DNA of 64,000 nucleotides from Candidatus Gastranaerophilales bacterium. GTDB taxonomy: Bacteria > Cyanobacteriota > Vampirovibrionia > Gastranaerophilales > Gastranaerophilaceae. The first letter of the stretch is position 1; each line of letters opens with the position of its first letter. The position numbers were made by a program, and so were the translations under genes. Location of the stretch: assembly GCA_944323925.1 (NCBI GenBank), contig CALUUI010000001.1, positions 124,001 through 188,000 of the forward strand, written 5' to 3'. Under the pieces are notes generated by a model. That model saw only the letters and a program-made list of their open reading frames with translations, searched no databases and had not been told where the DNA came from. Shown in pieces: positions 5,215 through 63,875 of this stretch.

Positions 5215-6013
5215 TCCCAAAGAGGTATCACAAGCAATTCGCCATTTAATTTTAGATACTGTAAAACCGTCCAATGCTGGTCACATAACATCTTCATTCT
5301 CAGTAGTGGAAATTTTGTATGCAATATATAATTATGCAAATATTAATATAAGTAACGTCGGAGATAAATTGCGAGATCGAGTTATAATTTCCAAAGAACA
5401 TTGTCGTTTAGCTCAGGTCTGTGTATTAGCATATCTGGGTTTGTTGGATGAAAAACTTTTAAAAGAATATTGCCTTGACGGAGGGCGATTGGGACATGAT
5501 TTATATAATATTATATGTCCTGCAATTCCGGCAATAGATATCGCCTCCGGTTCTTTAGGACATGGTTTAGGTGTGGGTGCAGGAATGGCATATGCTGATA
5601 AAGCTCATAATATATATGTGTTATGCGGAGATGGAGAATTGCAAGAAGGTTCAATGTATGAAGCACTTTTATTTATTTCTCAAAAGCGGATAAATAATTT
5701 GGTGGTGATTGTAGATAGAAATAATATGCAAATAGATAATTATACAAGAAATATTATAAATACCTCGGATAATCTTAAAGAGAGAATGTTATCGCTTGGT
5801 TTTGATGTAGTTGAGTGTGATGGTCATAATTCAGAAGAATTGATGCGGGCTTTGAAAAAGTCTACTGTAAATCCAAAATGTATTATTGCTAATACCGTTA
5901 AAGGTAAAGGTATGGAGTTTATTTTAAGACAATTTAACTTTGCAAAATTTCATCACTCAGGAATGACAGAAGAAGAATTTAAACTTGTATATGGAGCTAT
6001 AAAAAATGAATAA
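5195..6013 (+). CDS. Transketolase N-terminal (thiamine-diphosphate binding) subunit
   Basis: First half of a split transketolase-like enzyme. The thiamine diphosphate/Mg motif G-D-G-E-L-Q-E-G ... D-R-N-N-M-Q is intact, as are H-I-T-S-S-F-S near residue 30, S-L-G-H-G-L-G, and G-H-N-S-E-E-L. At 272 aa it corresponds to the usual N-terminal subunit of two-gene transketolases. The TTG start at 5195 is chosen because AAGGAGAG sits 6 bases upstream; it overlaps the upstream gene by 20 bases. The gene for the other half follows with an 8-base overlap. Placement inside a glycan locus suggests it makes or modifies an unusual sugar precursor rather than serving the pentose-phosphate pathway; that is inference. 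Confidence 0.9.
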   Translation: MKLQNYSPKEVSQAIRHLILDTVKPSNAGHITSSFSVVEILYAIYNYANINISNVGDKLRDRVIISKEHCRLAQVCVLAYLGLLDEKLLKEYCLDGGRLGHDLYNIICPAIPAIDIASGSLGHGLGVGAGMAYADKAHNIYVLCGDGELQEGSMYEALLFISQKRINNLVVIVDRNNMQIDNYTRNIINTSDNLKERMLSLGFDVVECDGHNSEELMRALKKSTVNPKCIIANTVKGKGMEFILRQFNFAKFHHSGMTEEEFKLVYGAIKNE

Positions 6014-7127: not shown

Positions 7128-7182
7128 AATGATGAGATTAAGAGATTAACTATGTTTATTATGTTACAAAGGATTTTATAAA

Positions 7183-8334
7183 ATGGAGAATAGGACTTTG
7201 TTGAAACTATATAACGGAAATGAGCTTCCGGTATTAGGATATGGAACTTGGCAAATAAGCGGGGCAGATGGTGTAGATAGTATTGTGTTTGCAATTAAGT
7301 CTGGATATCGCCATATTGATACCGCACAGGTTTATCAGAATGAAGAATGTGTTGGGAAAGCAGTTGATATTTGTATTAAGGAAGGAATTGTTAAAAGACA
7401 AGATTTATATATTAGTTCAAAGTTGAATTTTTTTAACCCCATAGGCTATAGGAATACAGTAAAGGCTTTATACGAAAGCCTTGGGAAATTGGGACTAGAT
7501 TATTTGGATAATTATTTAATTCATTGGCCTAATTTTACTCCTGATGATAGTTGGAAGTATTTAAATGCATCAAGTTGGTCTGCATTAGAAGATTTATATT
7601 CGAAAGGCGTATTAAAGAATTTGGGCGTTTCTAATTTCTTGGTTCACCATTTGGAAGAATTATTCAAAACGGCACAAATAAAGCCGTCTGTTAACCAATT
7701 AAATTTGAGTCCGCAATGGCAACAAAAAGAAGTCGTACAATTTTGCAAACAAAATGGTATCACGCCCATTTCGTGGTCAGCGAACATGAAAATTGAAAAT
7801 TGGAACAGGCATGTTTTAAAACATTTGGCTGAAAAATATAAGGTTTCAGTTAGTCAGTTATGTTATCGTTGGGCGGTAGAAAAAGGATATAGTGTTCTTG
7901 CCCGCTCATCAAATATTGAACATATTGAACAAAATATGCAGATTTTTAATTTTAAAATTGAAGAGCAAGATATGTTGTTGCTGGATGACCTAAATTCTCA
8001 TCCTAGTAATCATAACCAACATCCGGATGTAATGTACGGGGTGTATCAACAAGAGGAAATACTTAATCAGAGAGAGTTTGTTGCGAAAGAAAGTTGGTAT
8101 TTATTTGGTATTGTTCCGCCGGTTATAAAACGGAAAAATGTATCAATTACAACTTGCACCGGATGTATAAAAGATAATTTTGAGGCTACTAAAAAAGGGT
8201 TGCTTCGTTTTAAGAAAAAGAAAAATAAAATAAAAGTATATTTGTTTAATTTTTTATTGCTCGGAACTCTGCAATTAAAGGTTAGAAAGACCCAAGTAAA
8301 AGCAATTCCGCATTATGAAGGAGATGGAAAATAG
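7183..8334 (+). CDS. Aldo/keto reductase with C-terminal extension
   Basis: NAD(P)H-dependent aldo/keto reductase, TIM-barrel fold. The catalytic tetrad is visible: Asp in H-I-D-T-A, Tyr in Q-V-Y-Q-N-E, Lys in I-S-S-K-L-N and His in Y-L-I-H-W-P, plus G-V-S-N-F. The barrel ends near residue 275; the remaining ~100 residues are an extension not usual for the family, basic and containing Y-L-F-G-I-V-P-P-V-I-K-R-K and Y-L-F-N-F-L-L-L. A 55-base gap precedes it, and its stop overlaps the next AKR gene's GTG by one base. It is probably involved in reducing a sugar-derived carbonyl for the glycan; the substrate is unknown. Confidence 0.88.
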   Translation: MENRTLLKLYNGNELPVLGYGTWQISGADGVDSIVFAIKSGYRHIDTAQVYQNEECVGKAVDICIKEGIVKRQDLYISSKLNFFNPIGYRNTVKALYESLGKLGLDYLDNYLIHWPNFTPDDSWKYLNASSWSALEDLYSKGVLKNLGVSNFLVHHLEELFKTAQIKPSVNQLNLSPQWQQKEVVQFCKQNGITPISWSANMKIENWNRHVLKHLAEKYKVSVSQLCYRWAVEKGYSVLARSSNIEHIEQNMQIFNFKIEEQDMLLLDDLNSHPSNHNQHPDVMYGVYQQEEILNQREFVAKESWYLFGIVPPVIKRKNVSITTCTGCIKDNFEATKKGLLRFKKKKNKIKVYLFNFLLLGTLQLKVRKTQVKAIPHYEGDGK

Positions 8335-9479
8335 TGAAAAATATAATTTTAAGTAATAAAAATAAAGTGCCGGCTTTGGGCTTTGGAACGTATATGCTTT
8401 ATGGTGAAAATTGTACGAATGCTGTAATTGAGGCGATAAAACTCGGATATCGTCTTATTGATACAGCGGTAGCATATAAAAACGAAGAATTTATTGGAAC
8501 GGCAATAGATTATTGTATAAAAAATAATATTGTAAAAAGAGAGGAACTGTTTATTAATACTAAACTTTGCCATCATGAGCCTATTGGATATCAAAACACG
8601 ATAAAATCTTTTCGTGAAAGTATGAAAAGGTTAAAAGTTGAATATTTAGATTCGTATTTAATCCATTGGCCCAATGCAACGAAAGACGGCAGTTGGAAAC
8701 AGCTAAATAAAGAAACTTGGGAAGCAATGGAAGAGCTTTATAAACAAGGTTTGATAAAAAATATAGGTGTTTCAAATTTTGAGATTCATCATCTTGAAGA
8801 GCTTTTAAAGACAGCCAAAATTAGTCCTGTTTTAAATCAATTAAATTTGAGTCCAGTCTGGCAACAAAAGCAATTGGTTGATTTTTGTCGGAAACATGGG
8901 ATACAACCCATTGCTTGGCAAACAATAGTTACAGATGAATGGGCAAAAAGTACGTTGCTGCCAATTGCTTGCAAACACAGCCGTTCCATACCACAAATAT
9001 GTTTAAGATATGGCTTGGAAAAAGGGTGGGGTGTTTTGGCAAAAACTGATGTTAAAGACTATATGCTTGAAAATATGGCTATTTTTGATTTCAAATTAAA
9101 TGATGATGAGTTGGCAAAAATTGATTCATTAAATTCTTATCCTGCAAATCATGTTTGTCAGCCGGATGCTTTATATGGAATTTTAGAATACGTAGAGAAA
9201 ACAACTGCAAAAACATTGATTGACGAAGTAAAATTTAAACTTTTTAATGTGGTACCTTTTTTTAAAGTTAAGTATATTTATAGAGATATAAATCTTTATC
9301 AGATTAAATATTATCTTTTTAATTTTTTGCTTGTTTGGCGAAATAAATTTAAAAGTAAAGAAAATTCTATGTGCTATTTGTTAGGTTTTATTCCATTAAT
9401 TAAAATTAAACGAAAAATTGATTCCACAGGTCCAAAATTTATACCAGAATATAATATTGAAAAATTGTGTAGAATGTAA
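8334..9479 (+). CDS. Aldo/keto reductase with C-terminal extension (paralog)
   Basis: Second aldo/keto reductase, clearly paralogous to the preceding one (shared L-N-Q-L-N-L-S-P-x-W-Q-Q-K and Y-L-I-H-W-P-N). The tetrad is present: Asp in L-I-D-T-A, Tyr in A-Y-K-N-E, Lys in N-T-K-L-C, His in L-I-H-W-P. The GTG start overlaps the previous stop by one base, implying coupled translation. It too has a ~100-residue C-terminal extension, with K-L-F-N-V-V-P-F-F-K-V-K and L-L-G-F-I-P-L-I-K-I-K-R-K. The duplicated pair next to the split transketolase suggests two reductive steps, or a heterodimer, in making an unusual sugar or polyol; no substrate can be named. Confidence 0.88.
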   Translation: MKNIILSNKNKVPALGFGTYMLYGENCTNAVIEAIKLGYRLIDTAVAYKNEEFIGTAIDYCIKNNIVKREELFINTKLCHHEPIGYQNTIKSFRESMKRLKVEYLDSYLIHWPNATKDGSWKQLNKETWEAMEELYKQGLIKNIGVSNFEIHHLEELLKTAKISPVLNQLNLSPVWQQKQLVDFCRKHGIQPIAWQTIVTDEWAKSTLLPIACKHSRSIPQICLRYGLEKGWGVLAKTDVKDYMLENMAIFDFKLNDDELAKIDSLNSYPANHVCQPDALYGILEYVEKTTAKTLIDEVKFKLFNVVPFFKVKYIYRDINLYQIKYYLFNFLLVWRNKFKSKENSMCYLLGFIPLIKIKRKIDSTGPKFIPEYNIEKLCRM

Positions 9480-9494
9480 AGAAGGAGCCTTTAA

Positions 9495-10172
9495 ATGTCA
9501 GATTTGATTTCAATAGTAATCCCGACATATAATGGGGAAAAATATATCAAAGAATGTATATGGAGTATTCAAAATCAGAATATGAATACAGAGATTATCG
9601 TAGTGGATGATATTTCCAGCGATAGTACAGTTGATATCGCAAAATCTCAAGGTTGTAATGTAATAGTTAATAATGTGCATAAGGGGCAAGTAGCGGGAAA
9701 AAACACCGGAATAAAAGTGGCAAAGGGTAAATATTGGCTTACTATTGATCAGGACGATATGTTGGTTGATGGGGCACTGCAAAGACTTTATGATGAAATG
9801 CAAAAAAATCCTGATGAGTATATAATTATGGCGAAACTAAAGGATTTTTGTTCTCCGGATACTCCAGAACAGAAAAAATTTTGTAAGTCTCAGCCATTTT
9901 ATGGAATATTAACAGGCTCAACGTTGTTTAGAACAGAAATTTTTGATAAAATCGGATTATGGAAAGAAGGTGTTATAACAGGTGATGTTATTGATTTAAC
10001 GAACCGTTTGATTGAGTTTGGTTTGAGAATCAAGAAAGTTGATTTTGTTGCTTGTAACCGTCGTATTCATAATGCTAATTATGGTCGAACGAATCAAAAA
10101 GAAGAGTATAAAGATTATGCAAAAGCACTTAGAAAAAGGTTGGATATAAAGGAGAAAAACAATGCCTTTTGA
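9495..10172 (+). CDS. Short family 2 glycosyltransferase
   Basis: GT-A family 2 transferase of 225 aa, shorter than the tandem trio and representing mainly the catalytic domain. It has I-S-I-V-I-P-T-Y-N-G at the start, V-V-D-D-I-S-S-D-S, and the metal-binding D-Q-D-D near residue 83. An AGAAGGAG sits about 8 bases upstream of the ATG. The 3' end overlaps rfbC by 11 bases, linking it to dTDP-rhamnose synthesis; a rhamnosyltransferase role is plausible but not demonstrable. Confidence 0.85.
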   Translation: MSDLISIVIPTYNGEKYIKECIWSIQNQNMNTEIIVVDDISSDSTVDIAKSQGCNVIVNNVHKGQVAGKNTGIKVAKGKYWLTIDQDDMLVDGALQRLYDEMQKNPDEYIIMAKLKDFCSPDTPEQKKFCKSQPFYGILTGSTLFRTEIFDKIGLWKEGVITGDVIDLTNRLIEFGLRIKKVDFVACNRRIHNANYGRTNQKEEYKDYAKALRKRLDIKEKNNAF

Positions 10173-10719
10173 GTTTGAAAAACAAGAAATAGAAGATGTA
10201 GTACTTATAAAGCCAAAAGTTTTTGGTGATAATCGCGGTTTTTTTATGGAAACATATAAGAAATCTGAATTCTATAATAATGGTATAGCGGTAGAATTTA
10301 ACCAAGATAATCATTCAAAGTCTTCTAAAAGAGTATTAAGAGGATTACACTATCAAGCAAAACCATATGGACAAGCAAAGTTAGTCAGATGTACAAGAGG
10401 TCGAATATTTGATGTTGCGGTTGATATAAGACTTGGTTCAAAAACTTTTGGGAAATATGTAAAAGTTGAACTATCGGAAGAAAACAAAAATATGTTGTAT
10501 ATCCCTGAAGGATTTGCGCATGGATTTGTTGTATTATCAGACGAGGCTGAATTACAATACAAAGTTAGCGGGGAGTATAATCCAAGCTCCGATAGAGGCG
10601 TAATCTGGAATGACAAAGAAATAGATATTGATTGGGGTATAGACTTTGAACCGATTTTGTCAGAAAAAGATAAAAATCAGCCCAAATTATCAAATATAAA
10701 TAAAGAGGAACTAGTATAA
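10162..10719 (+). CDS. rfbC: dTDP-4-dehydrorhamnose 3,5-epimerase
   Basis: Third enzyme of dTDP-L-rhamnose synthesis, epimerising dTDP-4-keto-6-deoxyglucose at C3 and C5. The cupin-fold signature is complete: D-N-R-G-F-F-M-E near residue 25, Q-D-N-H-S, R-G-L-H-Y-Q with the catalytic His, D-V-A-V-D-I-R, and Y-I-P-E-G-F-A-H-G-F. Length 185 aa is typical. The start has AAGGAG about 8 bases upstream and lies within the end of the GT2 gene. Its stop overlaps the rfbB start by one base. It forms an operon with rfbB, rfbD and rfbA. Confidence 0.97.
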   Translation: MPFEFEKQEIEDVVLIKPKVFGDNRGFFMETYKKSEFYNNGIAVEFNQDNHSKSSKRVLRGLHYQAKPYGQAKLVRCTRGRIFDVAVDIRLGSKTFGKYVKVELSEENKNMLYIPEGFAHGFVVLSDEAELQYKVSGEYNPSSDRGVIWNDKEIDIDWGIDFEPILSEKDKNQPKLSNINKEELV

Positions 10720-11702
10720 TGACAACGATTTTAGTTACAGGTGGTGCCGGATTTATCGGAAGTTGTTTTATAAGACATATATTAAAGAAACACCCAAATT
10801 ATAAAGTTATAAATCTTGATGCGTTGACTTATTGCGGTAATCTTGAAAATCTTAAGGATGTTGAAGCTAACTTAAATTATAAATTCGTACACGGGAATAT
10901 TTGTGATGTTAAATTGGTTAGAGAATTGGTAGCAGAATCTGATTGTGTGGTGAATTTTGCTGCCGAGTCTCACGTTGATAATTCCATTAAGCACCCTGAA
11001 ATTTTTGTAGAAACTAATGTTCAAGGGACATTAACATTATTGCAGGCATGTAAAGAAATCGGTATTGAAAGGTATCTTCAGGTTTCTACTGATGAAGTAT
11101 ATGGCAGTCTAGGCAAAACGGGATATTTTTATGAAACTACCCCATTAGCACCAAATAGTCCATATTCTGCAAGCAAGGCTGGTGCCGATTTGCTTGTAAG
11201 AGCTTATAATGAAACATACGGTTTACCAACATTAAATACAAGATGTTCAAATAATTATGGTCCCTATCAGTATCCAGAAAAATTAATACCATTTTTTATA
11301 TCTAAGTTGCTTCGAAATGAAAAAGTTCCTGTTTACGGCGATGGCTTAAATGTTCGGGACTGGTTATATGTATATGACCACTGTGAAGCTATAGATGTAG
11401 TGCTTCATAATGGTAAAGCCGGTGAAATTTATAATATTGGCGGACATAACGAAAAAACTAATTTAGAAATTACTCATTTGATTTTAAGTGCAATGGGAAA
11501 GGATGAATCATCAATAGAATATGTTGAGGACAGGTTAGGGCACGATAGACGATACGCAATATCTAATGATAAAATAACATCAGAATTGGGCTGGAAACCG
11601 TCGTTAACATTTGAAGAAGGTATAAAACATACCATTAACTGGTATTTGAATAATCAAGAATGGATTAAGAATATAGAAGCGAAGAAAGCGAGTTTGGTAT
11701 AG
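10719..11702 (+). CDS. rfbB: dTDP-glucose 4,6-dehydratase
   Basis: NAD-dependent extended SDR enzyme converting dTDP-glucose to dTDP-4-keto-6-deoxyglucose. The Rossmann motif G-G-A-G-F-I-G-S is at residues 8-15. S-T-D-E-V-Y-G holds the catalytic Thr-Asp-Glu, and Y-S-A-S-K the Tyr and Lys. R-C-S-N-N-Y-G-P-Y-Q and R-D-W-L-Y-V are diagnostic for RfbB. Length 327 aa is normal. It overlaps rfbC by one base and abuts rfbD directly. Confidence 0.97.
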   Translation: MTTILVTGGAGFIGSCFIRHILKKHPNYKVINLDALTYCGNLENLKDVEANLNYKFVHGNICDVKLVRELVAESDCVVNFAAESHVDNSIKHPEIFVETNVQGTLTLLQACKEIGIERYLQVSTDEVYGSLGKTGYFYETTPLAPNSPYSASKAGADLLVRAYNETYGLPTLNTRCSNNYGPYQYPEKLIPFFISKLLRNEKVPVYGDGLNVRDWLYVYDHCEAIDVVLHNGKAGEIYNIGGHNEKTNLEITHLILSAMGKDESSIEYVEDRLGHDRRYAISNDKITSELGWKPSLTFEEGIKHTINWYLNNQEWIKNIEAKKASLV

Positions 11703-12530
11703 ATGAAAGTATTAGTAACAGGCGCAAAAGGAATGCTTGGGCAAGATTTGTGCCCGATATTAGAAGATGAGGGCTATGAAGTAGTTGAAACAGACATTAA
11801 TAACTTAGATATTACAAATTGTTCGGATGTAGAAAAATATCTAACATCTGAAAATCCTGATTTTGTAATTCATTGTGCAGCATATACAAATGTTGATAAG
11901 GCAGAGGAAGATATAGAAAATGCAAGATTAATAAATAAAGCCGGAACAGAAAATCTTGCCAAAGCCTCAGCAAATATTGGTGCAGTAATGGTTTATATTT
12001 CTACAGATTATGTTTTTGATGGGGAAAAAGGATGTCCATATCTTCCTGAGGATAAAACAAATCCGATTAATATCTACGGGCAGACAAAACTTGAAGGGGA
12101 GGAAGCCGTAAAAAAATATTGTGAAAAATACTATATAGCACGTACAAGTTGGTTATACGGTCATCATGGTAAAAATTTTGTAGAAACAATGTTATCCCTA
12201 AGGGATAAGGAGCAAATAAACGTAGTAGATGATCAAATAGGTTGTCCGACCTGGACGGTTGAACTCTCAAACGGAATAATTAAATTAATAGAGAATGAGG
12301 AATATGGAACATACCATGTCTGCGGAAGTGGAGAAACAAGCTGGTATGGGTTTGCAAAAGAGATATTTGAATTGTCAGGATTAAAAGTTAATTTAAAACC
12401 TTGTAAAACAGAAGATTTTCCAAGACCTGCAAGGCGTCCGAAGTATAGTGTAATGGCAAATAATAAAATATGCAGAAATTGGAAAATTGCCTTAAAAGAT
12501 TATTTAATGCTAAGAGAAGAGGATTTTTGA
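11703..12530 (+). CDS. rfbD: dTDP-4-dehydrorhamnose reductase
   Basis: NADPH-dependent SDR reductase giving dTDP-L-rhamnose. It has the N-terminal G-A-K-G-M-L-G-Q nucleotide-binding motif, [20 protein letters not shown], and the catalytic Tyr-Lys in [17 protein letters not shown] and G-C-P-T-W-T are further family marks. Length 275 aa is slightly short but complete. It starts immediately after rfbB and ends two bases before rfbA. Confidence 0.97.
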
Positions 12531-12532
12531 AA

Positions 12533-13411
12533 ATGAAAGGAATTGTATTAGCCGGCGGTAATGGAACACGTTTATATCCATCGACACAAGTAGTTTCAAA
12601 ACAATTACTTCCAATTTATGATAAACCGATGATTTATTATCCCATATCGGTATTAATGCTTGCCGGAATAAGGGATATCTTGGTTATATCTACACCACAG
12701 GATTTGCCGAATTTTGAGAAATTATTGGGAGATGGAGCACAATTTGGCTTGAATCTGTCCTATAAAGTTCAACCTAACCCCGATGGACTTGCACAGGCTT
12801 TTATTATTGGCGAGGATTTTATCGGCGATGATGCAGTTGCAATGATTTTAGGTGATAATATCTTTTATGGTTCAGGTTTTTCTGGACAACTAAAAAGAGC
12901 ATCAAAGTCAGCAAAAGAAAAAAAACAGGCAACAATTTTCGGGTATTCGGTAAAGGATCCGGAAAGATTTGGCGTTGTAGAGTTTGATAATGAAGGTAAA
13001 GTTATTTCAATAGAAGAAAAGCCTGAAAATCCAAAATCTAATTATGCTGTTACAGGTTTATATTTCTATGACAATAGTGTTGTAAGTTTGGCTAAATCAT
13101 TAAAACCATCACCTAGAGGTGAGCTTGAAATAACAGATTTAAACAGATTATATTTAAGCGAAAACAGGTTAAATATTGAAATTTTAGGTAGAGGATTTGC
13201 TTGGTTAGACACAGGAACACACAAGTCTTTGATAAGAGCAGGCCAATATGTTCAGACGATAGAAGAAAACCAAGGAATTAAAATAGCATGCTTAGAAGAA
13301 ATAGCAGTTCTAAAAGGATTTATTTCAAAAGAGCAAGTCTTAAAAAATATTGAAAACTATAACAATAACGAGTACTATAACTATGTAAAGACAAGATTAG
13401 AGACCCTATAG
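12533..13411 (+). CDS. rfbA: Glucose-1-phosphate thymidylyltransferase
   Basis: First committed enzyme of dTDP-rhamnose synthesis, joining dTTP and glucose-1-phosphate. The nucleotidyltransferase signature G-G-x-G-T-R-L-Y-P is at the N-terminus, followed by [12 protein letters not shown] and [11 protein letters not shown]-x-x-P-K-S-N and W-L-D-T-G-T-H also fit. The frame extends upstream to 12470, but the ATG at 12533 gives the standard N-terminus (M-K-G-I-V-L-A-G-G) and the usual length of 292 aa; the longer version would sit inside rfbD. It is the last gene of the polysaccharide run. Confidence 0.97.
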
Positions 13412-54473: not shown

Positions 54474-54508
54474 AAAAATGGTGTCTTTAGTAGTCGCCAT
54501 TTTTATTT
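54474..54508 (+). terminator. Terminator-like hairpin in the leader of the cluster
   Basis: AAAAATGGTG (54474-54483) pairs with CGCCATTTTT (54495-54504; one wobble) and is followed by ATTT. The next gene's AAGGAG begins at 54511, only seven bases later, leaving no room for another promoter. This favours attenuation, or termination of a short RNA, over simple end-of-operon termination for rlmD, which lies 160 bases upstream. Confidence 0.6.
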
Positions 54509-54521
54509 ATAAGGAGTTTAT

Positions 54522-56870
54522 ATGAGGATACAAAAAATTAATATAGTGGACAATCGAAAAGGTGTAGGAACTCAAGCCCAAAATTTTACCGCCGGAAAAA
54601 CGACATTGTTTTCAGATTTTGATGGAACGTATATCCCTGCCAAATACAATCATGACAGTGTTTGTAACTATTGCCCGCCAGTGAATAAAGGTGAATTTAA
54701 GTCGTATTTTGATAAGATATGGGAATTATTCGGCAAATTAAAAGGGAATGAAAAGGAGAGTAAATTTGATTTTGTAATTACAACGGGTAGGAATCTGGCA
54801 GAAACAAATTATTTTCTGGATAGACTGAAACAGCAGGATTTGTGGGTTCCTTTGCCGGAAAAACTAATTACTTGTAACGGACAAGATGAGTATTACAGAA
54901 ATGTAGCAAACGAGGAAGAGTACTATAGAGATCCAAATAGAAAAGCATTTATAAAAGAGAATGTTAATAATAAAAAACGGGAATATTATAAAAGCAAGGG
55001 ATGGGATTATCAGGCAATAGTTGCAAAAGTAAAAGAATTAATAAAGTCTAACTGGATAAATAATGATGTCATGTTTAAAGATCATATATTAGATATTCCT
55101 TCCTGCATAAAGATACAGCTTGGTATAAATGATACAAATGAAGTAATGTCTATATTAAATGAAATAATTGAAAACCAGTCAAACGAGCAAGGCATCCGTG
55201 CCATATTGGAGTCTAAAAATAAAAAGCAGCTAAAAGATAAAAAAGAAAAAGAGCTTCACGATTGGTATATGGGAGAGCTTGCTCATATATTGTATGTAGA
55301 AAATTCTAAAAAAACAAAAATTTTAGAGAATATCCCAACGACTCGTTCTAAACGTGAATATGGCGATGGGCTATCGCTACAGGCAGCTTTAGAACGATTA
55401 GGTATGACAAAAAACGATGATTTTGTGGCTTTTTCTGATGACGGAGAATTGGGTGTTAGAATTAGTGTAAACAAAAATAATAAAGAAAAATCAGAAAATT
55501 TATTAGATCGAGTTAAAAGAGCAATAACGAATGCGGAAATCTCAAGGAAATTACAAAAAGGTTCATACGGAGGAAAGGAATTTGAAATTAAACCACAGCT
55601 TATTGATAAATTAGAGGATACAAGGAAACTTGTAAGAGAGATATTAGAAAATCAAACAAATGATCTTGTAATTGTTGCGGGTGATGGTGAAAATGATTTA
55701 AAAATGCTTGATATAGGTGAATATAGGAACCAAGATTCTAAAGAAGATATACCTATAGTCGCAATATATGTAGATAATAGATCTGAGGATGAGCGAAAAG
55801 AAAGAAACTCAGAAATAAATCTATTTTTATCAAGAAGTAAATATTATAACCGAGCAGAACGTTTAAAATTTATTCATGTAGATCAGCAGGATCCGGCAAA
55901 ACCAAACACGCTGGAGGATGCTTTAAAAATAGCAATATGTAATTATGCAAAATATAATGATGCGTTTAGGAAAAATCTATCTCCTGAAATGCAAAAAATG
56001 GTAGAAGAATATGATTATAGTTATTTTGTAGGTGCGCAAATAGAAGAAAAAAACGATCAACAAATAATAGATAATAAAATTGAAGCAATAATTGCAAATT
56101 GGGAAAGAATTTTAGATAAAGAAGGAGCTATACCAGAGAAAAATATTATTGATACTGCTCTAGATGAAAACTCAAATATCAAAATTTCTGAAAGAACGCT
56201 GGTATTAACATCATTATCTATAATAATTAAAAATTATAATGAAATGTTGGATATGTATGGGAAAGAAAAAGTAAATACGATTATTAAAAGCAAATTGGAT
56301 GAAGAAATAAGAAACTTAAGAGAGACCGCAAGAAAAGAATCTATAACTGATATAAGAAAGGAAAAGATAAAAAAGCTAAAAAAATTAAATTTATTAAAAA
56401 AGAAAGTAACAAAATATATAGAAGGTGATATAAATATATTACCGAGGACCTGGAAAGAAATGTTAAAAAGGCTTCAAGAAAAGCGATTAAAAGAAGTTGA
56501 ACAGTATCGAAAGCAACAACAAAATATTGGTAATATTAAACCGGAAATTGAGAAAGAAAAAAAAGAAGGAATTTTAAGAATAATTGATAGTCTTAAACGT
56601 AACAAACAGACAGAAATAATTGATAACAATTCAAAACCTTCACTTCCTTCGGAAAGTCCAGTAGAAATTCCTACCGGAAAGAAAAAAATGATTGCGGAAA
56701 TAATAGAAGGATTAAAAAAGTATATATTCTCAAAAACAGGCATAATTATAATAACCGGATTATTAACCGCCGGTTCAATAACGTGTTTAGTAAAGTGTAA
56801 AAATGCATTATTCCAAGAAAAGAAAATAAAAGTGGAAAATGTTTTTTCAAATGTAGAAAAAAATATATAG
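54522..56870 (+). CDS. HAD-superfamily phosphatase-like protein with C-terminal membrane anchor
   Basis: Protein of 782 aa. HAD motif I L-F-S-D-F-D-G-T is at residues 29-36. F-V-I-T-T-G-R (motif II) follows near residue 85, and V-A-G-D-G-E-N-D near 388 is motif IV, an arrangement like Cof/sucrose-phosphate-phosphatase-type HADs with a large cap. The second half is charged and coiled-coil rich. One hydrophobic helix lies near residues 741-757 (I-I-I-I-T-G-L-L-T-A-G), with a short basic tail. The first 28 residues carry M-R-I-Q-K-I-N and N-F-T-A-G-K, shared in outline with other proteins of the cluster. AAGGAG precedes the start. The substrate, sugar-phosphate or protein, is unknown. Confidence 0.82.
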   Translation: MRIQKINIVDNRKGVGTQAQNFTAGKTTLFSDFDGTYIPAKYNHDSVCNYCPPVNKGEFKSYFDKIWELFGKLKGNEKESKFDFVITTGRNLAETNYFLDRLKQQDLWVPLPEKLITCNGQDEYYRNVANEEEYYRDPNRKAFIKENVNNKKREYYKSKGWDYQAIVAKVKELIKSNWINNDVMFKDHILDIPSCIKIQLGINDTNEVMSILNEIIENQSNEQGIRAILESKNKKQLKDKKEKELHDWYMGELAHILYVENSKKTKILENIPTTRSKREYGDGLSLQAALERLGMTKNDDFVAFSDDGELGVRISVNKNNKEKSENLLDRVKRAITNAEISRKLQKGSYGGKEFEIKPQLIDKLEDTRKLVREILENQTNDLVIVAGDGENDLKMLDIGEYRNQDSKEDIPIVAIYVDNRSEDERKERNSEINLFLSRSKYYNRAERLKFIHVDQQDPAKPNTLEDALKIAICNYAKYNDAFRKNLSPEMQKMVEEYDYSYFVGAQIEEKNDQQIIDNKIEAIIANWERILDKEGAIPEKNIIDTALDENSNIKISERTLVLTSLSIIIKNYNEMLDMYGKEKVNTIIKSKLDEEIRNLRETARKESITDIRKEKIKKLKKLNLLKKKVTKYIEGDINILPRTWKEMLKRLQEKRLKEVEQYRKQQQNIGNIKPEIEKEKKEGILRIIDSLKRNKQTEIIDNNSKPSLPSESPVEIPTGKKKMIAEIIEGLKKYIFSKTGIIIITGLLTAGSITCLVKCKNALFQEKKIKVENVFSNVEKNI

Positions 56871-56895
56871 ATAATAAAAAATGAAAGGAAAGAAA

Positions 56896-58470
56896 ATGAT
56901 TACAGGAATTTTATCAGTTCAGACTCCCCCAAGTAAGTCTATTTATAGGCATAATAAAAATGTAGTAAGAGAAAACAATAATTGTGTAAATGATAATTCA
57001 AAAAATAATACTGTTAAAATATCTTCCCAAACATTACAGGCCTATTCGGGTGTAAATTTTACAGGGCGAGGAAAAACAAATTATCTTTGGATGCAAACAA
57101 TAGCAGGATATATACCGTTAGTTATAGCTGCAGGTTTAGACTTAACAAAATCAGTAACAGTGCCGGCCCTTCCCGGTTTGATATGTGAAGATTCTGATTG
57201 GACAGATGTAAATATGGAGGGTGTTTATATAAAGAATTCAAAATTAAAAAATTCAAAATTTAATAATACAAACATGAATAGAGTAGAATTGCATGACTCA
57301 GACCTTTCAGGTTCTCAATTCAATGGAGTACAAGCAAAACAAGGTCGTTTCTCACATTCTAATTTTTACAATGTAACGATGAAAGACTCAGAATTTCCAC
57401 AAGCAAATTTTCAAAAAGCCGATTTTAAATGGGTAACAATTAAAAATTCAAATTTCAATAATGCAAATTTCCTTGGCGCAGACTTGAGTAATGTATGGAG
57501 TATAGACGAGGATTCAATCTTTCAAGGAGCAATATATGACAGAGATACAAAATTCCCATCAGGTTTTGATCCTGAATCCAAAGGAATGATAAAGCTAAAA
57601 GAAGGCGGGGACATGTCTGTTTTAGAGGGTGATATAAAAAGAGTTTTTTCAAGAGTAACAATAAAACCGTATAAAGAAGAATATCCGTATAGCTTGTCTA
57701 ATGCGGATTATTCAGGTTCAGATATGCAAGAGGGAAAATTTGATTCTGTTGAATTTATAAGCAGTAATTTTGAAGATACAATCGCTAGAGGAGCTATATT
57801 TATAGATTGTGATTTTTCAAAGTGTAAATTCAATGAAAAAAGTGACTTTGAAGGTGCAAGTTTTAATAACAGCGTGTTTTATGATACCAAATTTAATGGT
57901 GCAAATTTGAAGAGATGTAATCTTATTGGTGCAGATTTATCGGAAACAGATTTTGCTGAATTGCCAGATGAAAAAATAGCAGGTAGTTTTTATGATGTTA
58001 GTACTTCTTTTCCGGAAGGGTATAAACCGGAAGAACATGGATTGATTCCTCTTAATAAAAAAGCCGATCTTAGCAATTGTAATTTTTCACATATGAAAGT
58101 AAGAAATACGCTTTCAGGTGAACAATATATATTCTCAGGTTCAAATCTAAGACGGGCGGATTTTAGCGGAGCTGAATTAGGGTCTTGTGATTTTAGTGCT
58201 GCAAAGCTTCATGATGCTTGTTTTAAAGAAGCAAAAATGCAAGGTGCTAATTTTGAAGATGCAGTACTATATAATGCGAATCTTATAGGCGGTGATTTTA
58301 GAAATGCGAATTTTAGAAATGCAGATTTACGCTGGGCTAAACTTGTCGACGCAAATTTAGATGGTGCTGATTTTACAGGCGCAAAGTATGTTAAAAATGC
58401 TACAGAGTTTCCTAAGAACTTTAATCCCAAAGCTCACGGTATGGTAGAAGTTCCGCTCAAGTTAGCGTAG
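56896..58470 (+). CDS. Pentapeptide-repeat protein A
   Basis: Protein of 524 aa dominated by A-(D/N)-(L/F)-x-x pentapeptides, which fold as a right-handed quadrilateral beta-helix; several blocks are separated by P-E-G-Y and H-G-L/M-I-P/K linkers. The N-terminal ~50 residues are polar and disordered, then Y-S-G-V-N-F-T-G-R-G-K-T-N-Y and a hydrophobic segment (G-Y-I-P-L-V-I-A-A-G-L) that may insert in a membrane. The ATG at 56896 is chosen because AAAGGA lies six bases upstream; the ATG at 56881 precedes that site. A paralog follows after 16 bases. No enzymatic motif is seen; a scaffold or binding role is likely. Confidence 0.85.
   Translation: MITGILSVQTPPSKSIYRHNKNVVRENNNCVNDNSKNNTVKISSQTLQAYSGVNFTGRGKTNYLWMQTIAGYIPLVIAAGLDLTKSVTVPALPGLICEDSDWTDVNMEGVYIKNSKLKNSKFNNTNMNRVELHDSDLSGSQFNGVQAKQGRFSHSNFYNVTMKDSEFPQANFQKADFKWVTIKNSNFNNANFLGADLSNVWSIDEDSIFQGAIYDRDTKFPSGFDPESKGMIKLKEGGDMSVLEGDIKRVFSRVTIKPYKEEYPYSLSNADYSGSDMQEGKFDSVEFISSNFEDTIARGAIFIDCDFSKCKFNEKSDFEGASFNNSVFYDTKFNGANLKRCNLIGADLSETDFAELPDEKIAGSFYDVSTSFPEGYKPEEHGLIPLNKKADLSNCNFSHMKVRNTLSGEQYIFSGSNLRRADFSGAELGSCDFSAAKLHDACFKEAKMQGANFEDAVLYNANLIGGDFRNANFRNADLRWAKLVDANLDGADFTGAKYVKNATEFPKNFNPKAHGMVEVPLKLA
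57706..57842 (+). repeat. Near-identical block shared by the two pentapeptide genes, copy 1
   Basis: This 137-base stretch matches 59303-59439 with only three differences, all synonymous, whereas flanking parts of the two genes differ far more. It encodes the segment beginning D-Y-S-G-S-D-M-Q-E-G-K. Recent gene conversion is the simplest explanation. Confidence 0.9.
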
Positions 58471-58486
58471 ATTAAGGAGTGATATT

Positions 58487-60106
58487 ATGATAAATAAGGT
58501 ACAATTAATAAATTTATTATCTAAAACAAATAGAGCTGATAACCAAAAAACAAAAAATAATATTAATAGTTATCAAATAAATTATCAAAATCAAACAAAA
58601 AAATCCTTTACCGCAATTTCACCGGAGCTTTTACAAGTATACTCAGGGGTAAATTTTTCTGGTTGTAAAACAAATTACAAATGGATGTTATCGGCTGCTG
58701 CCGGTTATGTACCTTTGGTCATTACCGCCGGTCTTGATATGACAAAATCTATATCTAAACCAGCCTTTCCTAATTTAGATTCTAATGGCGGAGATTGGTC
58801 AAATGTTAATATGGAAAATGTTTATTTAAAAAATGCGAAGCTAACAAATTCTAATTTTAAATCTACAAGTATGGCAAATGTAAAATTACATTATTCGGAT
58901 TTAAGTAATTCAGTATTTGATAGAGTTAATGCACTAAGGGGCAAGTTTTTATATTCGAATTTTAGTAATACAAAACTAGAAAATTCAGAATTCGTTGGCG
59001 CAAATTTTCAAAAAGCCGATTTTAAAAATTCGATAATTAAAAATTCAAATTTTAGTAATGCAAATTTCCTTGGTGCTAATTTAAGTGAAGTATTGAGTAT
59101 TGATGATGACTCAATTTTTGTAGGTTCTATTTATGATAGTGATACAAGATTTCCGACAGGTTTTGATCCTGAATCAAGAGGAATGATAAAGCTAAAAGAC
59201 ATCGGAAATATTTCTGCCATAGGAAAAAATTCAAAGAGCATCTTTTCAGGGATAGTGATTAAACCATATAGTGGAGAGTTTCAATATAACTTGTCCAATG
59301 CAGATTATTCAGGTTCAGATATGCAAGAGGGAAAGTTTGATTCTGTTGAATTTATAAGCAGTAATTTTGAAGATACAATCGCCAGAGGAGCTATTTTTAT
59401 AGATTGTGATTTTTCAAAGTGTAAATTCAATGAAAAAAGCGATTTCTCTAATGTAAGTTTTAATAACAGTATATTTTATGATACCAAATTTAATGGTGCA
59501 AATTTGAAGAGGTGCAATTTTATAGGTGCTGATTTATCAAATTCCGATTTTGCTGAGTTGCCTGATTCTAATATTACAGATTGTATTTATGATTATAGTA
59601 CATCTTTCCCGGAAGGATATAATCCTATTGAGCACGGACTAATTTTAGTAGGGCATAATGCAAATTTAAGTGAATATGATTTTTCACATGCTGTAATGAG
59701 AAATTTATTTTTAGATGACCAATATAATTTCCAAGGTAAGTGTTTTAGAAGAGCAGATTTCTCCGGCTCAAAAATGAATAAAGTGATTTTTAAAGATTGT
59801 AGGATGAAAGAAATGTGTTTAAAAGAAGTCGAAATGCAAAGTGCGGATTTTGAAGGTGCATATTTGTATGGTGCAAACCTTACAGGTGGAAATTTTAAAA
59901 ATGCAAATTTTAAAAATGCTGATTTAAGCTGGGCAAATTTAGCTGGTGCAAATTTAGAAGGTGCAGATTTTGTAGGTGCAAAGTATACAAAAGGGACAAA
60001 ATTTCCGGAAGATTTTGAACCGAATAAATATGGAATGATAGAAATACCATTAAAAGAAAATTCCAAAGGAGATATAAATGAAAATATATGCTATGCAAAA
60101 TTATAA
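58487..60106 (+). CDS. Pentapeptide-repeat protein B
   Basis: Paralog of the preceding protein, 539 aa with the same plan: a polar N-terminus, K-K-S-F-T-A-I-S and Y-S-G-V-N-F-S-G-C-K-T-N-Y near residues 39-63, a hydrophobic segment (A-G-Y-V-P-L-V-I-T-A-G-L), then pentapeptide-repeat blocks interrupted by F-P-x-G-F/Y linkers. AAGGAGTG precedes the start at a good distance. Its last 29 bases overlap the kinase-like gene, so translation is coupled. The pair probably forms a structural or recognition module; no catalytic residues are apparent. Confidence 0.87.
   Translation: MINKVQLINLLSKTNRADNQKTKNNINSYQINYQNQTKKSFTAISPELLQVYSGVNFSGCKTNYKWMLSAAAGYVPLVITAGLDMTKSISKPAFPNLDSNGGDWSNVNMENVYLKNAKLTNSNFKSTSMANVKLHYSDLSNSVFDRVNALRGKFLYSNFSNTKLENSEFVGANFQKADFKNSIIKNSNFSNANFLGANLSEVLSIDDDSIFVGSIYDSDTRFPTGFDPESRGMIKLKDIGNISAIGKNSKSIFSGIVIKPYSGEFQYNLSNADYSGSDMQEGKFDSVEFISSNFEDTIARGAIFIDCDFSKCKFNEKSDFSNVSFNNSIFYDTKFNGANLKRCNFIGADLSNSDFAELPDSNITDCIYDYSTSFPEGYNPIEHGLILVGHNANLSEYDFSHAVMRNLFLDDQYNFQGKCFRRADFSGSKMNKVIFKDCRMKEMCLKEVEMQSADFEGAYLYGANLTGGNFKNANFKNADLSWANLAGANLEGADFVGAKYTKGTKFPEDFEPNKYGMIEIPLKENSKGDINENICYAKL
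59303..59439 (+). repeat. Near-identical block shared by the two pentapeptide genes, copy 2
   Basis: Second copy of the 137-base block (first copy 57706-57842). The three differences change codons without changing amino acids, so gene conversion and strong protein-level constraint may both act here. Confidence 0.9.
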
Positions 60107-61775
60107 TTTAATAAAACAAAATTTATTAAATTTCACCAGTAAGGTAAAAAATGTAAATTATGGAAAAATTAATGACGAGTATAAAGATAAAGTAGATCGT
60201 TTTGATGATGGGGAACGTTCAGAAGCGGAATATTTGGGACATGGTTTATTTGCAAAGGTATATAGATTTATTGATACAGACTTTGTTATAAAACAATATA
60301 ATAAAGGCATGCCATTATCAGATTGCAGGCAAGAGGCAAAAATGCTGGAAAAAGTCGGCGAATTATCCGGCTCGCAGCAATTAATGGCACAAGTTACTAC
60401 TGAAAATGGTAATGAATATTTGATATCTACTCTGGTAAAAGGTGAGGAACCTGATCCGGATGCCAATCCTTTTAACAAAGTTGCTCTTAAAAGTTTTATG
60501 AATACGCTAGCTGAACTTGATAAAAAAGGTGTGTATCATAATGATTTAAATACCGGAAATTGTAAAGTCGATTCGCAAACCGGACAAATAGGGCTTTTAG
60601 ATTATCAGTTTGCAATGGATATGGAGCCTTCAAATAAATACAGTAATTTACAAAATTTATTGTTTCCTGAATGTACTCTGCCGGCAAATATTCAGATGTT
60701 TGAGATGGCAAACTTACCCTCTTATATTAAGCATTTAGGACCATATAGGGCGAAAGATTTCTTTAAAGATTATCTTAGTATAAAATCCGATTATCATACT
60801 AAGAGGTACCATTATTATAGAAATGTAAAGATCCCCGGTGTTACTCCCGAAAATATTGAATATGAAATGCTGATGTCCAGAGTCCTAAAACGCCCATCTG
60901 ATAAAGTTGTTGATTTATATGCAAAAAAATCTCAAGTGATGTACTCCTTTAGAAACGCTTTTGGACTAACAGATGAAAATACTCGTGATATAAAACGACC
61001 TAATCTTCCGGCTGCCGGGGCTGCGTATTTGTATGCTGCATATCAAGCGTATGAATATTTGACTAAAGTTAATAATATTATTTCAACCGAAACTGACACT
61101 AACCTTGTAAAGCTAATGAAAACAGAGAAAAAAGTGGCACAATATTGGTTAGATAAATTATCTGATAGCGCATTAGGTACTTCTCAATGGCATACAAGAA
61201 ATGCACAAGGTGAATCAGCCCTTCTGGGAGCTAAAGATAAATATCCAGAAAGCATGGACTATTACATGTATGCGCCGATTGATAAAATTGATGATATGTA
61301 TACAACAATAACAAATAATGATAATTCAGGGAAAATAGATGTGCTTACTTTTCCATACTCAACCGGATTAAATAGTGACTATAAAGAACTGTTTACATTA
61401 AAAGACAGTTTGAAGTTGAATGATTTCCCAGCTTCTGATAGAGATTTATTCGCACGTTTTAATTCCTGCTTTAAGGATTACGAAGCTGCATTAAATAATG
61501 CAAAAGTCATTGCTTTACCTATGTTACATGCGTTCACACTTTATAGTGCAGTACAATTATTTAAGCACGGAAGATATAACTCTAAGGTTGGCTTATTAAA
61601 AAATAGATTAGAAAAAATGGCGGAGCCCTTAATAGAATGTGTTGTTGATGCCGTAAAAGGTAAAGGTGGGGTGTTGTCAGAGGCCTTGAGAAAAGACTAT
61701 AATTTGAGTAATATATATGCAAAAAACAATGTAGCAAATCGAAAGTTTAAAGACTATATAAAATTGTATTATTAA
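60078..61775 (+). CDS. Protein-kinase-like fold protein
   Basis: Protein of 565 aa with a protein-kinase-like catalytic core in its first third: glycine loop G54-H-G-L-F-A-K-V-Y, the ATP-contacting Lys72 (V-I-K-Q-Y), a candidate alpha-C Glu86, catalytic loop H154-N-D-L-N-T-G-N161 and metal-binding Asp175 in L-L-D-Y-Q-F in place of D-F-G. All essential residues are present, so activity is plausible. It could be a Ser/Thr kinase or a small-molecule (Kdo/APH-like) kinase. The C-terminal ~350 residues are helical and unrecognised. N18-F-T-S-K and the M-K-I start match the cluster's N-terminal theme. AAAGGAG precedes the start inside the previous gene. Confidence 0.8.
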   Translation: MKIYAMQNYNLIKQNLLNFTSKVKNVNYGKINDEYKDKVDRFDDGERSEAEYLGHGLFAKVYRFIDTDFVIKQYNKGMPLSDCRQEAKMLEKVGELSGSQQLMAQVTTENGNEYLISTLVKGEEPDPDANPFNKVALKSFMNTLAELDKKGVYHNDLNTGNCKVDSQTGQIGLLDYQFAMDMEPSNKYSNLQNLLFPECTLPANIQMFEMANLPSYIKHLGPYRAKDFFKDYLSIKSDYHTKRYHYYRNVKIPGVTPENIEYEMLMSRVLKRPSDKVVDLYAKKSQVMYSFRNAFGLTDENTRDIKRPNLPAAGAAYLYAAYQAYEYLTKVNNIISTETDTNLVKLMKTEKKVAQYWLDKLSDSALGTSQWHTRNAQGESALLGAKDKYPESMDYYMYAPIDKIDDMYTTITNNDNSGKIDVLTFPYSTGLNSDYKELFTLKDSLKLNDFPASDRDLFARFNSCFKDYEAALNNAKVIALPMLHAFTLYSAVQLFKHGRYNSKVGLLKNRLEKMAEPLIECVVDAVKGKGGVLSEALRKDYNLSNIYAKNNVANRKFKDYIKLYY

Positions 61776-61895: not shown

Positions 61896-62972
61896 ATGGG
61901 TTTAGCATGTTCACAAGTTAGATTGTTAACGCTTATTAGCCGAAAGGGTGATAACGAGCTTGAAACTATGCTAATTTCTAATAAGAAATTAGCCCTTTCT
62001 CGTGAACAAAGTAACTTATCTCAAGAGTATTATAGCAAGTTACAAAACAAAAAGATTAATTATTATAATAATGGTGCTTATTGTCCTATTACTTACAGTT
62101 ATTTAATGGGTGATAGTTCAATGAAAAGTTCTTTTGTTGATAATATAGCAATTGAAATGATAACGGATGCAGATATAAAAGCGGAATTAGCAGCACAAGG
62201 TGTAACAACATCAACACCCGTAACTAAAACGGATAATTCGGTAATCTTAACAGATTATAGAGGATTGGTTGTTCTAAACAAAGAGTACTCAAATGCGATA
62301 ATTGCGGCTTGCGGATCCGATGTTAGCTGTGACGGAAATGGTAGGGGCAGTACTTTTAAAGCTTCATATATTCCTGAAATTATTGCTCAGTATATGGGAT
62401 ATGCTAAGGATTCTACGGAGTATAAATCTTTAATGGCTGTTTATAATAATGATACAGCTGCACTGGAAGAATTAGGCTTGGCTACTCATAATATAGACGG
62501 AACCAAAGAAGATGGAACGGTTGTAACAAGTGGTTTTACATCAACTAGCCGAGGGGTAGCATATCAAGAAATTATTGATTTCTATAAACCAATATTTCAA
62601 GCGTGTGCTTCTAATGGTTGGACAACCGAATATACAAGTAATTTATCTGATAGTGATTATATGAGTAACGCTTTAACAAGTGGTATTTTTCATCTTCAAA
62701 CTGTTGACAATTATGGGGAATATGAAACAGGAACTTCTTTACAATATTATTTGAACGCTGCTTTTGTTACTGAACGCAGAGACTCTGTTGAACAAGAAGA
62801 AATTACTGCTTGGTATAATGCTGAAAAAGAAAAAATTTCTGCAAAAGAAGATTACTGGGATGTTCAGCTTCAAAATTTATCTACTGAACTTTCAGCGATT
62901 GAAACAGAAATTGAATCTGTCCAATCTTTGATAGATGATGCTATATCGTCTGTATTTGATTGGGGTGCATAA
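61896..62972 (+). CDS. Sigma-28-driven protein of unknown function, likely flagellar or exported
   Basis: Predicted 358-residue protein. It begins M-G-L-A-C-S-Q-V-R-L-L-T-L-I-S-R-K, with no cleavable signal peptide, then S-N-L-S-Q-E-Y-Y-S-K-L-Q. The middle is rich in Ser, Thr, Asn and Asp like many secreted proteins, and the last ~60 residues form a coiled coil (L-S-T-E-L-S-A-I-E-T-E-I-E-S-V). Helical ends and a polar middle recall flagellar-type export substrates. Its near-perfect sigma-28 promoter and adjacent flagellar genes support a role in or around the flagellum. No known family is recognised. AAAGGAG lies before the start, and a terminator follows. Confidence 0.8.
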   Translation: MGLACSQVRLLTLISRKGDNELETMLISNKKLALSREQSNLSQEYYSKLQNKKINYYNNGAYCPITYSYLMGDSSMKSSFVDNIAIEMITDADIKAELAAQGVTTSTPVTKTDNSVILTDYRGLVVLNKEYSNAIIAACGSDVSCDGNGRGSTFKASYIPEIIAQYMGYAKDSTEYKSLMAVYNNDTAALEELGLATHNIDGTKEDGTVVTSGFTSTSRGVAYQEIIDFYKPIFQACASNGWTTEYTSNLSDSDYMSNALTSGIFHLQTVDNYGEYETGTSLQYYLNAAFVTERRDSVEQEEITAWYNAEKEKISAKEDYWDVQLQNLSTELSAIETEIESVQSLIDDAISSVFDWGA

Positions 62973-63041: not shown

Positions 63042-63875
63042 TTAGGTAACAAGTTGCATTGCGTTTTCCAGTAGTTCTTTATTAGATTTGATTAGTGCAT
63101 TAACCAATTCCATTTGAACTTTTGCTTGTTGGTATTCTGCAATGTTATTTTTGAAATCAGTATTTGACATTTCTAATAGTCCTGAACGGATTTCGCCACG
63201 TCCTACAACTGGTTTACCTGATTCACTTGTTTCTACATATTTGCTGTCTGAAATTTCATATAGTCCGTTTGGATTATGGAAATTTGCGGTTGCAATTTTA
63301 TATAGAGGTACGGAACGTGTTCCGTTGTCTGCCTTACCATAGATTGTTCCATCGGTTCTTATTTCGTATTCATCATATTTACCTAAGAACTTTCCGTTGT
63401 TAGGGTCAATCCAAAGTTTTATATTGGTCGTCGGAATGCTCAAAGCCCCGCCTTTTAGCGCTGTCTCTTGGTATAAATCGGCGCTAATAGATTTTGTACC
63501 GGACATTATTTCACCTTTATCATTTAATATATATCCTTGAACGGTATCACCGTCATTTGCTCGGTAAACACCTTCCGAGTCAAAAGTAAATTCACCGTGA
63601 CGCGTATATGCTACTTTCCCTTCGGCATTTCTTACTATAAAGTAACCGGAACCTTCAAAAAATAAGTTTTCATTTGATGTTCCGGGGGTTGATTTACCTT
63701 GACCTTGGTTTTTTAGTGGATGATCAACAATTGCACCGCCAAGGAAGGTTTGAAAGTTGATTTTGTTTTCCTTAAACCCAGGGGTATAAAGATTAGTCAT
63801 GTTATCGGCTAATACATTTATCCATTGGTTCGTTGCACGTTGTGTATTAAGTGCGGTTGTGAAAGAATCATTCAT
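63042..63875 (-). CDS. Flagellar rod/hook protein (FlgF/FlgG family)
   Basis: Axial flagellar protein of 277 aa. The N-terminal rod signature (L-N-T-Q-R-A-T-N-Q-W-I-N-V-L-A-D-N-M-T-N, residues ~8-27) is followed by Y-T-P-G-F-K; the middle has G-x-G-Y-F-I-V-R and Y-T-R-H-G-E-F-T-F-D. R-G-E-I-R-S-G-L-L-E-M-S-N-T-D and the C-terminal helix N-A-L-I-K-S-N-K-E-L-L complete the family plan. FlgF and FlgG are too similar to separate here. AAAGGAT precedes the start, which overlaps an upstream gene by 8 bases. Confidence 0.93.
   Translation of the reverse strand: MNDSFTTALNTQRATNQWINVLADNMTNLYTPGFKENKINFQTFLGGAIVDHPLKNQGQGKSTPGTSNENLFFEGSGYFIVRNAEGKVAYTRHGEFTFDSEGVYRANDGDTVQGYILNDKGEIMSGTKSISADLYQETALKGGALSIPTTNIKLWIDPNNGKFLGKYDEYEIRTDGTIYGKADNGTRSVPLYKIATANFHNPNGLYEISDSKYVETSESGKPVVGRGEIRSGLLEMSNTDFKNNIAEYQQAKVQMELVNALIKSNKELLENAMQLVT

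What the first reader, a model, noticed from the sequence alone, without database searches (positions are those of the whole stretch)
54474..61775. Cluster of a kinase-like protein, a HAD phosphatase-like protein and two pentapeptide-repeat proteins
Four genes run in one direction with 10- and 16-base gaps and one 29-base overlap. One product has all core kinase residues (K72, E86, H154-x-D156, N161, D175). One has the HAD motifs D-F-D-G-T and G-D-G-E-N-D plus a C-terminal membrane helix. Two are paralogous pentapeptide proteins with a hydrophobic N-terminal segment. All share a short N-terminal motif. Opposing kinase and phosphatase-like activities around repeat scaffolds could form a phosphorylation switch at the membrane. 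I know of no described system with this composition; the functional link is inference from order and coupling.
Basis: partly seen in the sequence, partly recalled or inferred. Interest (0 to 1): 0.85.

Follow-up and report, generated by a model that had tools for sequence, protein, structure and literature searches.

The report
Paired kinase and phosphatase gene module
In gut bacteria related to cyanobacteria, a protein-kinase-like gene and a phosphatase gene are kept side by side across many genera with both active sites intact, and share a lineage-specific N-terminal tag, so they probably add and remove phosphate as one unit; in this genome they are joined by two repeat proteins.

Summary
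The four genes are as described. In a survey of the order, the HAD phosphatase and the kinase-like gene are neighbours in 34 distinct loci (18 genera, two families): same strand, divergent, or in swapped order, often overlapping. Catalytic residues are invariant in essentially all linked pairs. So the core is a two-gene kinase/phosphatase module. The long pentapeptide proteins are an add-on, found only in the window's genus and three other genera. AlphaFold models support a protein-kinase fold with a helical C-terminal domain, and a HAD-IIB (sucrose-phosphatase-like) fold; several kinase homologues pass Pfam's Pkinase cut-off. Both enzymes carry a disordered leader (MKIxxI...[SN]F[KTG][SAG]) that also occurs on unrelated, mostly uncharacterised proteins of the lineage. 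An unexpected lead: nearly all these genomes, including eleven that have the module but no flagellin, keep a second, separate flagellum-type export apparatus, earlier read as incomplete flagella. The leader proteins are plausible substrates; this is untested. Most likely function: opposing phosphorylation and dephosphorylation of a common, probably protein, target, possibly after export.

The parts
54474..54508 (+). Terminator-like hairpin with U-run in the 5' leader, just before the HAD ribosome-binding site (AAGGAG 54511-54516)
   Evidence: Read; same element at the same place upstream of HAD in three congeners (L089, L090, L101) with compensating stem changes, although the window's cluster sits at another genomic site; no Rfam match; not picked up by the simple terminator scan
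54522..56870 (+). HAD-IIB-type phosphatase, 782 aa
   Evidence: TIGR01484 2.9e-6; all HAD motifs intact; model resembles sucrose phosphatase 1s2o, Z 16.7, 235 of 244 residues, rmsd 3.6
54522..54599 (+). N-terminal leader of HAD (MRIQKI...NFTAGK), disordered in the model
   Evidence: pLDDT below 50 for residues 1-22; F22 conserved in 32 of 33 loci
56736..56792 (+). C-terminal hydrophobic helix of HAD, residues 739-757
   Evidence: Hydropathy 1.98; low-confidence helix in the model
56881..58470 (+). Pentapeptide-repeat protein 1, 529 aa
   Evidence: PF00805 2.9e-50
58487..60106 (+). Pentapeptide-repeat protein 2, 539 aa, paralogue of protein 1 (63% identity)
   Evidence: PF00805 4.6e-48
60078..61775 (+). 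Kinase-like protein, 565 aa: leader, kinase domain (about residues 20-270), helical C-terminal domain
   Evidence: Catalytic residues invariant; model resembles protein kinases, Z about 13 over about 204 residues; homologues pass the PF00069 cut-off
60078..60143 (+). N-terminal leader of the kinase (MKIYAM...LNFTSK), disordered in the model
   Evidence: pLDDT below 50 for residues 1-19; M1 and F19 invariant across the family
63042..63875 (-). FlgE/F/G-type axial protein; a similar gene is also kept in genomes without flagellin, so it probably belongs to the second export apparatus (candidate export route, not part of the module)
   Evidence: PF22692 3.9e-11; matches of the family in 14 of 14 genomes

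Best explanation
A two-enzyme phosphorylation module. A divergent protein-kinase-like enzyme (kinase domain plus a lineage-specific helical domain) phosphorylates a target, most likely a protein. Its partner, a HAD-IIB phosphatase that has a C-terminal hydrophobic helix in many species, removes phosphate from the same target or from the kinase itself. Both carry the same short disordered N-terminal leader, which probably sends them to the same place. In the window's genus and three others, pentapeptide-repeat proteins with the same kind of leader were added, probably as binding platforms or targets. Shown: gene pairing, intact active sites, folds at model level, the leader, patchy gain and loss. 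Inferred: enzymatic activity, shared substrate, destination, role of the repeat proteins.
For: 34 distinct linked HAD-kinase loci: 21 HAD then kinase (window included), 2 swapped, 10 divergent, 1 convergent; gaps mostly -50 to +150 bases. Co-occurrence odds ratio 17.5, p 2.8e-13 in 241 genomes, not corrected for phylogeny. Conservation through rearrangement argues against mere inherited neighbourhood. HAD catalytic residues intact in 33 of 33 pairs, distance correlation of the partners 0.96 with 0 of 2000 permutations reaching it. Kinase K, E, D, N, D intact in all linked pairs. Kinase-domain matches to kinases of other cyanobacterial-phylum genomes, but full-length matches only in this order; Pkinase above the cut-off in L091, L104, L105, L112, L116. 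In G063 the kinase is gone and the HAD is a broken remnant at the site that holds the module in two sister species.
Against: No activity or substrate is known. HAD-IIB relatives mostly hydrolyse small sugar phosphates, not phosphoproteins. Solo copies exist: 28 of 56 kinase genomes have no detected HAD, and some HADs have no nearby kinase. The partner distance correlation partly reflects shared species history. The window kinase itself misses the PF00069 cut-off and has DYQ in place of DFG.
Confidence: 0.55

Rival explanations
1. Exported effector cassette: the leader is a type III export signal, and kinase, phosphatase and pentapeptide proteins leave the cell through the second flagellum-type export apparatus to act on host, protist or neighbouring cells. 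It is compatible with the best explanation and adds a destination.
For: Leader is N-terminal, disordered, rich in N, Q, S and poor in L, D, E; it occurs on unrelated proteins. A second FlhA, FlhB, FliP, FliQ, FliR, FliE, FliF, FliH and rod-protein set persists in module-bearing genomes that lack flagellin. Kinases and pentapeptide proteins are recurrent kinds of secreted effector in other bacteria (general knowledge).
Against: No secretion data. Any disordered linker could have this composition, and the motif-based choice of proteins biases it. The second apparatus keeps FliE and rod proteins, which mark flagella rather than injectisomes (PMC3459982). No secretin or translocon was looked for.
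Confidence: 0.3
2. Small-molecule cycle: the kinase phosphorylates a sugar-like or antibiotic-like compound and the HAD-IIB enzyme reverses it.
For: HAD model is closest to sucrose, trehalose and mannosylglycerate phosphatases; the window kinase's best Pfam hit is APH, 23.0 bits against a cut-off of 23.2.
Against: Homologues of the kinase hit Pkinase rather than APH, several above the cut-off; the fold matches are protein kinases; no transport or sugar gene is conserved nearby.
Confidence: 0.12
3. Defence or toxin-antitoxin unit: a harmful kinase held in check by the HAD.
For: Patchy distribution, HAD-first overlapping frames, decay of HAD where the kinase is gone; weak generic kinase hits to PD-T4-6 and MAD6.
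Against: No hit for HAD or pentapeptide proteins in PADLOC; none for the kinase in phages, plasmids or viral contigs; solo kinases are common; the shared leader is not explained.
Confidence: 0.12
4. No functional link; inherited neighbourhood only.
For: Both genes belong to lineage-specific families and share species history.
Against: Pairing persists through four gene arrangements and across 18 genera and two families.
Confidence: 0.05

Closest known systems
Hanks-type (eukaryotic-like) Ser/Thr protein kinases, Pfam PF00069
   Same: Fold, catalytic Lys/Glu/Asp/Asn/Asp; several homologues pass the family cut-off; kinases of other genomes of the phylum match about residues 51-190 of the profile
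   Different: Window protein misses the cut-off, has DYQ for DFG, a short kinase domain and a helical C-terminal domain not matched outside the order
HAD-IIB / Cof-type phosphatases (sucrose phosphatase SPP, SupH, YhjK)
   Same: Fold and all four HAD motifs
   Different: N-terminal leader, enlarged cap and long helical tail with C-terminal hydrophobic helix in the window version; below the TIGR01484 cut-off
Bacterial Ser/Thr kinase and PP2C-type phosphatase pairs (such as PrkC/PrpC; from general knowledge)
   Same: Adjacent opposing kinase and phosphatase genes
   Different: Phosphatase here is HAD-IIB, not PP2C; no PASTA domain hit; leader and pentapeptide partners
Pentapeptide-repeat proteins (PF00805)
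   Same: Strong family match, eight to nine matched stretches each
   Different: Long versions with a KTNY-containing N-terminal part, seen only in kinase/HAD loci in this survey

Membership tests
Protein kinase (PF00069) | Catalytic residues: Lys, Glu, catalytic Asp, Asn, Mg-binding Asp | tested here: met
   K72, E86, D156, N161, D175 invariant
Protein kinase (PF00069) | Score above the Pfam gathering cut-off | tested here: inconclusive
   Window kinase not listed for PF00069 at E 1 or better; homologues L091, L104, L105, L112, L116 pass
Protein kinase (PF00069) | DFG motif glycine | tested here: not met
   DYQ in the window and close relatives; D-x-G in the divergent branch
Protein kinase (PF00069) | Protein-kinase fold | tested here: met
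   Z 13.6, 204 aligned residues, rmsd 3.8; Foldseek E 2.9e-6
Protein kinase (PF00069) | Phosphorylates proteins | not testable with these tools
   Needs an assay
Aminoglycoside/small-molecule kinase (APH, PF01636) | Score above the Pfam cut-off | tested here: inconclusive
   23.0 against 23.2 bits in the window; weaker than Pkinase in homologues
HAD-IIB phosphatase | Motifs DxDxT, T/S, K, GDxxND | tested here: met
HAD-IIB phosphatase | Fold with inserted cap | tested here: met
   1s2o Z 16.7, 235 of 244 residues, rmsd 3.6
HAD-IIB phosphatase | TIGR01484 curated cut-off | tested here: not met
   27.5 against 41.8 bits
Pentapeptide-repeat proteins | PF00805 above the cut-off | tested here: met
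   167.8 and 160.8 bits against 20.2
Type III secreted effector | Disordered N-terminal signal region | tested here: met
   pLDDT below 50 over residues 1-19 and 1-22
Type III secreted effector | Export by a type III apparatus | not testable with these tools
   Apparatus genes present; export untested
Non-flagellar type III system (second apparatus) | Lacks flagellum-specific FliE, FlgB, FlgC | tested here: not met
   FliE and Flg_bb_rod proteins present; rule from PMC3459982
Anti-phage defence system | Match to known defence families for both partners | tested here: not met
   Only weak generic kinase hits

The most novel reading that the evidence does not exclude
The order Gastranaerophilales keeps a second, filament-independent flagellum-type export machine whose substrates are a large set of leader-tagged proteins, among them this kinase/phosphatase/pentapeptide module, delivered to host or neighbour cells.
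Probability: 0.27. Interest if true: 0.87.

Novelty: new variant of a known kind. Interest (0 to 1): 0.6.

Why it matters
A HAD-IIB phosphatase locked to a protein-kinase-like partner is not among the kinase/phosphatase pairs I know of, and the few paper searches made here found none. Its patchy spread across common gut bacteria makes it an accessory trait worth testing. If the leader marks export, it would give a way to list secreted proteins in a gut lineage long described as having either flagella or incomplete flagella, and would explain why the 'incomplete' set is conserved in species without flagellin.

Tried and rejected
Pentapeptide proteins as the core: rejected, since most linked loci lack them. 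Direct sequence relatives among solved structures: none for the kinase, one meaningless hit for HAD. Those proteins come from related genomes, so the p-value is optimistic. The search for related loci with the widest alignment failed and was repeated with five closer sequences. Phage, plasmid and viral collections: no relatives. Rfam: nothing for the upstream hairpin. The kinase's C-terminal domain was barely tested by the fold search, because the kinase domain fills the list, so no claim of a new fold is made. Paper searches found no report of a type III effector system in this lineage, but only open-licence full texts were searched.

Full report
What is there. The window is G000:C1:124001-188000 of a 1.94 Mb genome; its close relatives are labelled Gastranaerophilales in public records. 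Four genes on the + strand lie between an rlmD-like gene and an uncharacterised gene: HAD 54522-56870, PPR1 56881-58470, PPR2 58487-60106, kinase 60078-61775.

Is it conserved. Searches of 117 genomes of the family found kinase in 21 and HAD in 20, and reading the loci showed the two side by side in most. Profile searches of 241 genomes of the order gave 56 genomes with kinase, 38 with HAD, 28 with both, and 25 with both on one contig within 6 kb. Together with the GTDB loci there are 34 distinct linked pairs, the window included (two of them nearly identical), in 18 genera and two families by the handles' labels. The order of the genes varies: HAD then kinase 21, kinase then HAD 2, divergent 10, convergent 1. 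Frames often overlap by 4 to 50 bases. Long pentapeptide proteins are found only in such loci: the window's genus, L091 and L092, and a shorter one in L097.

Are the enzymes intact. In the HADs the catalytic positions are invariant in 33 of 33 linked loci. In the kinases Lys72, Glu86, Asp156, Asn161 and Asp175 are kept in every linked pair; His154 varies. Some solo relatives (L115) have lost them, and a few neighbours of solo kinases (L110, L113, L114) carry only the C-terminal domain.

Folds. The kinase model (mean pLDDT 79) resembles protein kinases over about 204 residues, Z 13.6; the rest is helical. Outside the order the profile finds only the kinase domain of kinases from other genomes of the phylum. 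Several homologues pass the Pkinase cut-off, which tips the balance from small-molecule kinase to protein kinase. The HAD model (mean pLDDT 75) matches sucrose phosphatase with Z 16.7 over 235 of 244 residues.

The leader. Kinases and HADs of all branches tend to start M-[KR]-I-x-x-[IV] and have [ILVP]-[SN]-F-[KTG]-[SA] some 10 to 60 residues on; a site of this kind was found in 58 of 63 sequences, with little else alignable before the domain. Residues 1-19 and 1-22 are disordered in the models. The same combination is found on unrelated proteins of these genomes, including an AAA ATPase, and similar N-termini on a 5'-nucleotidase-like protein and many proteins without any Pfam match. The site is enriched over internal windows (p 1.5e-6), and its two halves go together (p 1.4e-6). 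The segment is rich in N, Q, S and poor in L, D, E.

A possible export route. A search for FlhA found two types. One scores above NCBI's flagellar cut-off and was found in a subset of genomes; the other scores about 720 bits and is in nearly all. The second type sits in an operon FliE, FliF, unknown, FliH, FlhA (L155, L160, L161). A second FlhB is next to a sigma factor, a second FliP lies with FliM/N-like, FliO, FliQ and FliR, and FlgF, FlgG, FlgB and FlgC-like rod genes form another cluster. Eleven of 19 genomes with the module have no flagellin but keep this set as far as it was searched. [quoted passage not shown]); the papers read here do not treat it as a separate export system. By the rule of PMC3459982 it is flagellum-type, since FliE and rod proteins are present.

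History. Within the genus the module sits at one site in G029 and G090, is a broken HAD remnant at that site in G063, was not found in G111, and is at another site in the window genome. A terminator-like hairpin precedes the HAD in all four, with compensating changes, although the site differs; it may be a regulatory leader that travels with the module.

How it probably works. Kinase and phosphatase act in opposition on one target or in series; the leader brings them to the same place; the pentapeptide proteins, where present, are binding platforms or targets. Pairing and intact active sites are shown; the rest is inference. Export is the most interesting addition and is untested.

Noticed in passing
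L155 (G000:C13) 4794-10750; L216 (G000:C9) 5573-9817; L211 (G000:C5); L163 (G000:C2) 11156-12923; window 63042-63875: A second, scattered flagellum-type export gene set, kept in nearly all genomes of the family, including those without flagellin.
   Followed up: partly
L141:14562-15728, L151:8292-10106, L153:12169-13038, L164:10638-12149, L104:1451-2323 and others: The leader MKIxxI...[SN]F[KTG][SAG], or a similar N-terminus, occurs on many unrelated, mostly uncharacterised proteins of the lineage.
   Followed up: partly
window 61896-62972; L156:3535-5112; L209:2-955: A family starting MG(L/M)..SQ(A/V)RLL, next to the FlgE-like gene of the second export set in the window and in L209; no Pfam match where tested; could be an axial protein or substrate.
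   Followed up: no
L110:8418-9854, L113:11114-12133, L114:6385-8792: Proteins with leader, a likely membrane helix and only the C-terminal domain of the kinase family, placed between kinase paralogues.
   Followed up: no
L104:7815-9302, L106:5323-8253, L107:6619-7977, L117:5965-7161, L173:5458-6810, L174:11111-12466: In the divergent HAD/kinase arrangement a third leader-bearing gene family of unknown function lies near the HAD, where the window has pentapeptide genes.
   Followed up: no
L101 (G063:C19) 9887-11174: Decayed HAD remnant without kinase at the site that holds the module in two sister species.
   Followed up: partly
window 54474-54508: Terminator-like hairpin directly upstream of the HAD ribosome-binding site, conserved with compensating changes in three congeners.
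   Followed up: partly
L155 (G000:C13) 623-1248 and 1844-2469: A pair of small overlapping genes, toxin-antitoxin-like in size and layout, is duplicated in tandem with identical N-termini.
   Followed up: no
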